Positions 40,201-43,200 of a stretch of DNA of 64,000 bases are shown in pieces. The DNA lies in NCBI GenBank assembly GCA_030248295.1, contig JASANH010000781.1, positions 558,001 to 622,000 on the forward strand, given 5' to 3'. Positions within the stretch are counted from its first letter, which is position 1. Each line of letters begins with the position of its first letter. Under the pieces are notes generated by a model. It did no database searches. It was not told the origin of the DNA and was given only the letters and a program-made list of their open reading frames with translations. This stretch comes from Mesodorylaimus sp. YZB2_4 (lineage: Eukaryota > Nematoda > Enoplea > Dorylaimida > Dorylaimidae). A program made the position numbers and the translations under genes.

Positions 40201-43200
40201 TGATATTTGCTTCCGAACGCTCAAGTTGACAGCGCCGACCTACGGGGATTTGAATCATTTAGTTTCAGTGACTATGTCTGGCGTGACCACTTGTCTCCGA
40301 TTTCCTGGCCAACTGAACGCCGATTTGCGCAAGCTGGCGGTGAATATGGTACCGTTTCCGAGACTGCATTTTTTCATGCCTGGATTCGCTCCTTTGACAT
40401 CTCGAGGTAAGGTCATAACTGTTGTCGTTGGTTATGTGAAGGGTTGGTTGGTGGTGGATGCGACATGCGCATGCATTGCTTGCTAGATGATCATGGGGAC
40501 TTCCAGCAATGTAACCTTTTCTCCTACTGTGCTTTGAACGCGGTCGTCCCTCCTGCCATGGAGACTTTTGCCTCAATCTGGAGACTAAGGTCCTTGGTCC
40601 GCACTACTGTTCTACGACTCATCAAAGGTTCGGGCCACAGCATTGGTTGTCCACGATGCTGTTGACTTCACTACAGACACAGTAGACCATATTCGTAGCC
40701 TGATCCTACGGTGGATTGTTCAGTATTGACCCTATATAAAAGTTATTGAAACTTTGAATCTACAAATGGCGGGAAATGTTGTGTACATGTTGAGTACCCC
40801 GCCTTACTTGGCACCCTTGTCTTGGCACTATGGGCAAGAGAGCAGCATGGCTGCTTCTACCTGCGTTTGTCGATTTGTGTAGCGCCAGCAGCACCGATCG
40901 GCAGCAGAGCTAACTGTCGCGAAGAGCAGAAAGGCTGCGTGCTCAGGACAGGACTACTTTATTTGACTGTTGCTGCCAATTTTGAGGACTCGCACCGGTA
41001 AAACTTGGTGACTGGCGTGATGTCTTCTCGACTGTTCTGTGTGGTCGCCCTTGTCAATGGATGTGCAGTAAACATGGACCCCGCGATGGAATGTCCGATA
41101 GATAAGGCTGCTTTGCTTTCAGGCACTGCCGTCTTCCAGAACCAAAGTGTGGCAGACATCTCGAAGCAAGTTTGGGACTGTCGTAATCTGATGGTGGCTT
41201 GCGATCCGACCTACGGTCGATATTTGACGGCTGCCGTCGTGTTCAGGGGAAGAGTGTCCATGAAGGTAAGGGATGACTGTGAAAGGACACTCAGGCTAGT
41301 TGGGCACCCAGCTGTGGGTATGAGCATGAGCCGTGGTGGTGCTGGTCCACCACTACTGACTGGGCAGATCAGCGACAAACAACAAAGTTAATGTGAACCA
41401 GGTCCAAAACAGATGATCGCCTCATGTTAGAAAGGTCGAAGGCACAAATAGTGCTCTAGCCACAGGGCCTGGTAGTGAGCAATTGCGAGTTGGATAGAGT
41501 CATCGATCTTCCTTGGCGGAAACGTCAACCCGTCAGGTTGATGTTTTAGCCGCAGGTAGATGCAGTATGCGCAATGCTCGCCATGCGGCAGTCGAAGTTT
41601 TTATCCGAGAAAATTGTTGCCCACATTCTATCATGCTCAGTACACTGCTGACCCACCTGACGGAACCTTGTACCCCACAAAATATTGTTTTTATTCAAGG
41701 AAGTCGACGAGCAAATGATAAATGTTCAAAACAAAAACAGTTCCTATTTCGTGGAATGGATCCCGCACAATGTCAAGACAGCAGTCTGTGACATCGCGCC
41801 TCGCGGACTGAAGATATCAGCCACGTTCATTGGGAACTCGACGGCCATTCAAGAGCTGTTTAAGCGGATATCGGATCAGTTTTCAGGTGAGCAGGTGTTG
41901 GATTTTTGTGTGCGATCAGCCTCGCACAGTACATACCTCTGCAGTTACCCACAGAGCCCAGTCATTCTTTGCGAAAGGCCAATCGACGCTGCAATACCGT
42001 GGGAAGCCGAACTCGCACTGCGAATCCCTGTTGACCTCTGCGTAGGACATCTGTAGTAGGCGTGTTTGGCCTGTGGAGAAGATAGTGTATCAGGTTGCCT
42101 TAACTGGCCGCCTTATACGCGGAGGAGTATGTGGTTGCCTTGACTGGCCGCCGCATACAGCGTATCAGTTGCCATCGTTGGCCGCTGGATACGCTCCTCC
42201 AAGCGAGGCCGAAAGCCGTCGGGTTGATGTCTCGGGCACCTACGACTAGGTGACCTGCCTGGAGGGTTTTTGAGTCCATCCGCTCCCCGCGGTATCTTCT
42301 CCAATGTAGGGCTATTCCGCCTATTACACATCCCGCATCTAAAAAGTGTAAATCTGGGACAGCCGTAGCACAATGATAAGAGGGATGACTTGCGATGTCC
42401 TAAGTTGTGTCTGCAAAGAAATGCTCTCTCTTTGGGCATCTTAAGTTTTGTCTGATTTCATAGCGCTTTCGTCGTCCTGAATTTCGAACGTGTCCTAGGT
42501 GATTGTTTAATCGGTCCGAGGGTTAGTCGTGATTGGCTAGTGAGAACGAAGCGCGCCTCCCCAACTTTTGTTCAAACAACGTTTATTTCTGTTAGGCATT
42601 TCCCGTTCTTGAGAGGGTCGCCCAAAACGCATTAAATGCCAAGATGTGTAGGAGGACTGGAGAAAGTTTGGTCAAATCAAACAATCTGCGTGTCACAGAT
42701 CGTCAGTTTGGACAATGCTGTCCATCCGCACATGTCCTGATGTTGCGAGTTGGCAATGCAGCAAGTCAGTTTTTGAGCGAGCGCTTCTGTCGTGGACTGT
42801 CTGTGCTTCCTATTGACGTCAGAACGATCGTTTCTTGCAATTAGTGTACGTGGACCGGATCGTCCGATGTGCTCTCATCAGCGCAATTAGAAGGCTCTTG
42901 CTGACGGCAGCTTCTTGGTAATAATATGTCTCGATAATATGATAATCGCAAACTGAAGGCATCCGGATTGCAATCAGCAGGCAGATAGCCTGGTTCAACG
43001 TTCTGATCAGGGGGTAATTTCGTTTTCTTTACTTTGAACTTATTAGGGCCATAATGTTGCCAGGGATCCGAGCATATAAGCAAGATGACGGGTATGCCTG
43101 GTCAGTTTTTGTCCTTTGCTCCCTGAGTCAAAATGGGTTTGCTTACTCTGCTCGTCGTCTGCTTGGTTCTGACATCGTTCGCTGGCGAGGCGGCGGGGAA

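What the first reader, a model, noticed from the sequence alone, without database searches (positions are those of the whole stretch)
41123..41265. Beta-tubulin whose M-loop/H9 exon is strongly divergent while the rest is conventional
Seen: all seven exons join into a normal 446-residue beta-tubulin. However, in exon 5 the segment after LTSRG, which in nearly all beta-tubulins reads close to QQYRALTVPELTQQ, is replaced residue for residue by [15 protein letters not shown]. Known: the M-loop makes the lateral protofilament contact, and the Tyr and Arg of QYR (about 283-284) are key, with taxane binding nearby. Inference: this isotype may form microtubules with altered lateral contacts, or exon 5 was overwritten by conversion from a decaying copy.
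Basis: partly seen in the sequence, partly recalled or inferred. Interest (0 to 1): 0.75.

Follow-up and report, generated by a model that had tools for sequence, protein, structure and literature searches.

The report
Beta-tubulin with a swapped contact exon
A nematode beta-tubulin gene builds its microtubule side-contact loop from a strongly diverged duplicate of one exon, while a dead remnant of the ordinary exon still sits in the neighbouring intron, so this protein probably makes microtubules whose strands grip one another differently.

Summary
Seven exons with GT-AG introns give a 446-residue beta-tubulin. Exon 5 (41123-41265) differs from two conventional paralogs at 25 of 48 residues, against 24-25 of 377 elsewhere. 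The genome is a nematode's; I recognised only two other beta-tubulin genes, both with the ordinary M-loop exon.

The new result is how this arose. Intron 4 holds a decayed relic of a conventional exon 5, starting 240 bases upstream of the divergent one. It matches the conventional exon above shuffles and, in the live gene, does not match the divergent exon; at informative sites it carries the conventional base 18 times, the divergent base 3 times, neither 11 times. So the gene once had tandem exons 5a (conventional) and 5b (divergent). Exon 5 is 143 nt in all three genes, so both could not be used in one message. 5a died and 5b remains.

Changes in 5b are conservative, unlike a decayed exon. 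The aromatic at 281 is kept (Tyr to Phe); Arg282 is lost. Later the gene's 3' half was copied in tandem and decayed.

I read it as a working isotype with remodelled lateral contacts. Splicing, expression and microtubule architecture are untested.

The parts
37215..37271 (+). beta-tubulin exon 1 (residues 1-19)
38567..38786 (+). beta-tubulin exon 2
38841..39085 (+). beta-tubulin exon 3, holds GGGTGSG
40100..40406 (+). beta-tubulin exon 4, ends LTSR plus first base of Gly277; 1 of 102 residues (175-276) differs from the paralogs
40883..41003 (+). relic of a conventional exon 5 ('5a') in intron 4: gaps break the frame, no GT at the expected donor place; 3' boundary approximate
   Evidence: local alignment to exon 5 of paralog C99 scores 51 (0 of 2000 shuffles reach it) and of C67 43 (0 of 2000, 1 of 300); conventional base at 18 diagnostic sites, divergent base at 3, neither at 11
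41123..41265 (+). divergent live exon 5 ('5b'), residues 277-324, M-loop + H9 + S8
41700..41886 (+). beta-tubulin exon 6
44471..44652 (+). beta-tubulin exon 7 with stop
45632..45705 (+). decayed copy D of part of exon 5b (a stop and a 6-nt loss)
46462..46584 (+). copy B of the 5a relic (ends approximate); the bases CAGCAGTACCG still spell Gln-Gln-Tyr-Arg
   Evidence: score 69 to C99 exon 5, 57 to C67 (0 of 2000 shuffles each)
46690..46829 (+). copy B of exon 5b, splice sites intact, Cys303 changed to Gly, 3-nt loss, Arg at 282
50344..50467 (+). copy C of the 5a relic (ends approximate); weak on its own, placed by collinearity with A and B
   Evidence: score 40 to C99 exon 5 (1 of 2000 shuffles), 28 to C67 (91 of 2000)
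50584..50726 (+). copy C of exon 5b, splice sites intact, Cys303 changed to Trp
51127..51263 (+). decayed copy of exon 6
53864..53990 (+). decayed copy of exon 7 (end approximate)

Best explanation
This is a working beta-tubulin isotype that has exchanged its M-loop/H9 exon. Steps: (1) exon 5 was duplicated in tandem inside the gene, giving E4-5a-5b-E6 (read from the relic). (2) Exon 5 is 143 nt in this gene and in both paralogs, with the same phase, so a message could carry only one of the two; they were then probably used as alternatives (inferred). (3) 5b diverged in the M-loop and helix H9 as a protein-coding exon while 5a kept the ordinary sequence (conservative substitutions shown; order inferred). 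(4) 5a died and 5b became the gene's only exon 5 (shown for this locus). (5) The 3' half of the gene was copied in tandem, and those copies are decaying; one of them shares a conversion-like tract with the live exon (shown). Mechanism (inferred): the M-loop folds into the pocket made by the neighbour's H1-S2 and H2-S3 loops. Keeping an aromatic at 281 (Phe) should keep insertion possible, while replacing the other residues of the loop (including Arg282) and most of the start of H9 should change lateral affinity, protofilament angle or number, and taxane-site chemistry, probably in a restricted cell type.
For: Intact seven-exon gene. Outside exon 5, dN about 0.04 with saturated or near-saturated dS, so the gene is constrained. 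Exon 5: 25 of 48 residues changed, 18 of 24 in residues 277-300. Changes conservative, 0 of 5000 random simulations from each of two starts as conservative. Relic 5a matches conventional exon 5 in the live gene and in copy B (0 of 2000 shuffles each with either paralog's exon; one live-gene test reached by 1 of 300). With 5b as query the live-gene relic gives nothing (1334 of 2000 shuffles reach it). Conventional base 18/19/17 against 5b base 3/3/4 at diagnostic sites of relics A/B/C, neither at 11/10/10. The relics share an 18-nt gap, a 1-nt gap and a missing donor in all three copies. Exon-5b changes unique to the live copy: 1, synonymous; copies B and C each lost Cys303. Pocket and aromatic 281: PMC10519996 and PMC12966321, passages read.
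Against: No transcript data: neither expression nor former alternative use of 5a is shown. No ortholog from another species could be examined. Relic identity to conventional exon 5 is only 54-61% over 120-123 aligned sites plus 20-26 gap columns, with the M-loop half weakest. Copy C's relic is weak: 91 of 2000 (C67) and 1 of 2000 (C99) shuffles reach it, and unrelated window bins score up to 36 (C67) and 41 (C99); copies B and C also match 5b weakly (26 and 23 of 2000). The 10 of 24 other changes that fall in lateral partner elements are no more than human TUBB's 5 of 12 against the paralogs, so co-evolution of the pocket is not supported. The conversion tract leaves open that the present exon letters came through copy C.
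Confidence: 0.7

Rival explanations
1. Exon 5 was overwritten by gene conversion from a decaying downstream copy.
For: Decaying copies B, C and D exist; a conversion-like tract of about 300 bp joins the live exon to copy C, and its direction is open.
Against: The copies already carry the divergent sequence; the live exon keeps Cys303 while B and C lost it; substitutions are conservative; the live copy has 0 unique amino-acid changes. Copy B alone reads the conventional Arg at 282, a weak hint of stepwise change (chance about 0.15 by a crude count).
Confidence: 0.12
2. The divergent exon came in whole by recombination from another, more divergent beta-tubulin gene now lost, beside the old exon 5.
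For: Sharp boundary at intron 4: exon 4 has 1 change in 102 residues, exon 5 has 25 in 48.
Against: No donor was found in the genome (these score best candidates only); the boundary also lies near a structural one.
Confidence: 0.13
3. The gene is a recent pseudogene or an assembly chimera.
For: Decaying partial copies lie next to it.
Against: All seven exons open, canonical splice sites, strong constraint; flanking intron sequence is shared with copies B and C, so exon 5 belongs here; no further conventional exon 5 beside C67 and C99 was found in the assembly.
Confidence: 0.05

Closest known systems
Tetrahymena beta-like tubulins BLT1/BLT4 (PMC3382179, passages read)
   Same: M-loop of BLT1 almost completely substituted; Q279A and Y281F in BLT1 are the same changes as here
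   Different: BLTs also differ at the GTP site and at longitudinal surfaces; here change is concentrated in one exon
Euplotes focardii EFBTU3 (PMC9784925, passages read)
   Same: Isotype with unusual M-loop residues, used in a subset of microtubules
   Different: Cys281, cold-adapted ciliate; no exon swap mentioned in the two passages read
C. elegans MEC-7 (PMC8987236, passages read)
   Same: Nematode isotype needed for 15-protofilament microtubules; M-loop differences proposed as a cause
   Different: The passages do not print its M-loop; that it is close to the conventional sequence is recalled
C. elegans TBB-6 and the second Trichuris trichiura gene (PMC8496844, PMC11607648, passages read)
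   Same: Divergent nematode beta-tubulins
   Different: Reported as divergent without M-loop detail in the passages; possible orthology not testable here
Nematode-type chain in PDB 6e88_B, 'Tubulin beta-2 chain' (that it is C. elegans TBB-2 is recalled)
   Same: Reads GTQAYRALTVAELTQQ; shares Thr278 and Ala287 with this gene
   Different: Few changes; Tyr281 and Arg282 kept
Tandem duplicated exons with mutually exclusive splicing (PMC9013439, PMC9741552: search listing and start of abstract only)
   Same: Adjacent homologous exons of equal original length and phase
   Different: Here one of the pair is dead, so at most a fossil of such a pair

Membership tests
beta-tubulin | full-length alignment to solved beta-tubulins | tested here: met
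   E = 2.7e-275 to 9eok_B, 'Tubulin beta-4 chain', over residues 1-444
beta-tubulin | GTP motif GGGTGSG and MREI start | tested here: met
   present in the spliced protein
beta-tubulin | ordinary M-loop QQYRALTVPELTQQ | tested here: not met
   [14 protein letters not shown]; this marks conventional isotypes and is not needed for family membership
beta-tubulin | aromatic at 281 of the M-loop | tested here: met
   Phe281
mutually exclusive tandem exons | adjacent homologous exons between the same flanking exons | tested here: met
   relic 5a at 40883-41003 and 5b at 41123-41265, between exons 4 and 6
mutually exclusive tandem exons | two working exons at present | tested here: not met
   5a has gaps that break the frame and no GT at the expected donor place
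mutually exclusive tandem exons | alternative inclusion in transcripts | not testable with these tools
   no RNA data
ciliate beta-like tubulins | divergence at GTP site and longitudinal surfaces too | tested here: inconclusive
   only 24 of 377 changes outside exon 5 against the paralogs; I did not classify them by GTP-site or longitudinal surface

The most novel reading that the evidence does not exclude
Ancestors of this worm switched the lateral-contact loop of one beta-tubulin by mutually exclusive splicing of two M-loop exons, choosing microtubule architecture cell by cell at the RNA level; this gene later froze in the divergent setting, and relatives may still carry both exons.
Probability: 0.35. 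Interest if true: 0.82.

Novelty: new variant of a known kind. Interest (0 to 1): 0.6.

Why it matters
Which residues of tubulin set protofilament number and lateral strength is still argued over (recalled). A natural beta-tubulin in which change is concentrated in the M-loop/H9 exon, over a strongly constrained body, is close to a ready-made domain-swap experiment. The dead conventional exon beside it also suggests a route by which isotypes can arise: tandem exon duplication followed by loss of the old exon, which would not show in protein comparisons alone. In the open library held here, no paper holds 'tubulin', 'mutually exclusive exon' and 'M-loop' together (0 papers), and none holds 'tubulin', 'M-loop', 'isotype', 'nematode' and 'substitutions' together (0 papers); subscription papers and preprints were not searched.

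Tried and rejected
Flatworm origin: my first guess (paper search), dropped when 133 Col_cuticle_N matches were found. Conversion of exon 5 from an alpha-tubulin (it shares SVADI with alpha genes of this genome): rejected, the codons differ; the motif scan recovered the exon in 6 of 8 alpha loci looked at. Co-evolution of the M-loop pocket (K58R, Q83R and others): 10 of 24 changes lie in H1-S2, H2-S3 or H3 (p = 0.006; element limits recalled), but human TUBB shows 5 of 12 in the same elements, so not claimed. Selection keeping exon copies B and C: not needed; a constrained live copy plus a drifting copy B predicts 9.5 differences, 5 seen (p = 0.08). A conventional exon 5 in intron 3, 5 or 6: none above shuffles. 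A 5b-like relic in introns 4 or 5 of the paralogs: none. Relatives in the prokaryote and viral collections: none confirmed. Rfam and tRNA scans of the window: no hits. The tubulin-family matches on C133 and C331 were not assigned to a type. Species not identified: the one size-based paper search listed 1 paper, which I did not open. Structure prediction was not tried, because a spliced protein is not a letter-for-letter translation of the window.

Full report
The gene. The genome held for this window is 145 Mb in 1067 contigs and has 133 matches to the cuticle-collagen N-terminal family, so it is a nematode; I did not identify the species. Searches of the whole genome, which score best candidates only, showed two other beta-tubulin genes, on contigs C67 and C99; both read GSQQYRALTVPELTQQ in the M-loop. 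Tubulin-family matches on C133 and C331 were not assigned to a type.

How unusual exon 5 is. Against the paralogs, exon 5 differs at 25 of 48 residues and the rest of residues 1-425 at 24-25 of 377; the paralogs differ from each other at 0 of 48 and 2 of 377 (p = 3e-14). Human TUBB differs from each paralog at 2 of 48 in exon 5. Synonymous sites between this gene and the paralogs are saturated in most exons while dN outside exon 5 is about 0.04, so this looks like an old, constrained gene and not a pseudogene. In residues 277-300, 18 of 24 are changed. Tyr281 becomes Phe and Arg282 becomes Gln; Arg306 and His307, which the 6 alpha-tubulin exons recovered also have, become Thr and Tyr. Residues Phe167, Glu198 and Phe200 are as in the paralogs.

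Not decay. Starting from either paralog's exon (a stand-in for the ancestor) and mutating at random to 25 amino-acid changes, none of 5000 simulated exons from each start was as conservative as the real one (mean BLOSUM62 +0.6 observed, -0.6 simulated). Random mutation alone would leave no stop in about 30% of cases, so the lack of stops by itself says little.

The dead conventional exon. Scanning introns 4 and 5 for a hidden conventional exon gave a weak protein match in intron 4. At the DNA level the conventional exon 5 of the paralogs aligns there from about the splice acceptor to the last codons. Local alignment scores with the C99 exon are 51 in the live gene, 69 in downstream copy B and 40 in copy C; over 2000 dinucleotide shuffles each, 0, 0 and 1 reached them. 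With the C67 exon the scores are 43, 57 and 28, reached by 0, 0 and 91 shuffles (in the smaller run, 1 of 300 reached the 43). With the divergent exon as query the scores are 22, 32 and 33, reached by 1334, 26 and 23. Across the window the best places unrelated to this locus scored 36 (C67) and 41 (C99), so copy C's relic is not convincing alone and is placed by its collinearity with the other two. At sites where conventional and divergent exons differ, the relics carry the conventional base 18, 19 and 17 times, the divergent base 3, 3 and 4 times, and neither 11, 10 and 10 times. Overall identity to the conventional exon is 54-61% over 120-123 aligned sites with 20-26 gap columns. In copy B the bases still spell Gln-Gln-Tyr-Arg. 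My reading is that the gene once had a conventional exon 5 (5a) and a divergent one (5b) in the same intron. Exon 5 is 143 nt with the same phase in all three genes, so joining both would break the frame; that is a usual setting for mutually exclusive splicing, though I cannot show it happened. The three relics share an 18-nt gap, a 1-nt gap and a missing donor, so 5a was most simply dead before the next step.

The 3' copies. A stretch beginning about 120 bases before 5a is repeated at 46349 and 50221; copy C still has decayed exons 6 and 7, and a further exon-5b scrap (D) lies at 45632. All of B, C and D have the divergent 5b sequence. The live exon (A) and copy C share a conversion-like tract: 295 of 306 sites identical at 41001-41306 against 166 of 236 upstream (p = 1e-17). 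A against B shows no such break (262 of 294 and 203 of 228, p = 1.0); B against C does (261 of 294 and 171 of 228, p = 6e-5). That leans towards A having written over C, but the intron parts inside the tract give the same identity to B from both (127 of 154, summed), so the direction is open. The live exon has one change not shared by B or C, synonymous; B and C each lost Cys303 and B lost three bases. B reads Arg at 282, as conventional tubulins do; by a crude count this has a chance of about 0.15, so it is at most a hint that Arg282 was lost late.

How it probably works. Cryo-EM work reports that the M-loop inserts into a pocket formed by the neighbour's H1-S2 and H2-S3 loops (PMC10519996, passages read) and that the aromatic residue, Tyr281 in beta, is buried in the interface (PMC12966321, passages read). 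Here the aromatic ring stays and the surrounding loop and H9 residues change, so I expect assembly to work with altered lateral strength or angle. C. elegans MEC-7, needed for 15-protofilament microtubules, has been proposed to act through M-loop differences (PMC8987236, passages read), and Tetrahymena BLT1, with an almost completely substituted M-loop that shares Q279A and Y281F, serves a subset of microtubules (PMC3382179, passages read). Ascarids have a testis-specific beta-tubulin (PMC9143322, passages read), so restricted expression is plausible. None of this is tested for this gene. I found no evidence of compensating change in the pocket beyond what human TUBB shows.

Verdict. A real and well-located oddity: a beta-tubulin isotype most likely made by duplication of the M-loop exon and loss of the ordinary one. 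It is a new variant of a known kind, beta-tubulin isotypes with altered M-loops. An origin by exon swap did not appear in the titles and abstract starts listed by my paper searches (lists capped at 10-20 rows; two searches returned no papers).

Noticed in passing
43133-43547: Inside intron 6 of the tubulin gene, same strand, two open pieces look like a small secreted cysteine-bearing protein (signal-peptide-like start [22 protein letters not shown]). DNA similar to parts of it lies at 48277-48546.
   Followed up: partly
39640-39880 and 44260-44432 (inverted): A dispersed repeat with an internal hairpin-like inverted stretch sits in intron 3 and, inverted, in intron 6; the genome search with the intron-3 copy listed 78 matches, with 2225 first-look candidates of which 40 were scored.
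   Followed up: partly
42112-42238 and 19163-19290: Another repeat shared between intron 6 and a place 23 kb upstream (82% identical).
   Followed up: no
40764, 46349, 50221: The tandem copies of the gene's 3' half start at the same point about 120 bases before relic 5a, and tubulin exon 5b is far better kept in them than exons 6 and 7.
   Followed up: yes
53186-53208: A run of 23 G bases, possibly a sequencing or assembly weak spot.
   Followed up: no
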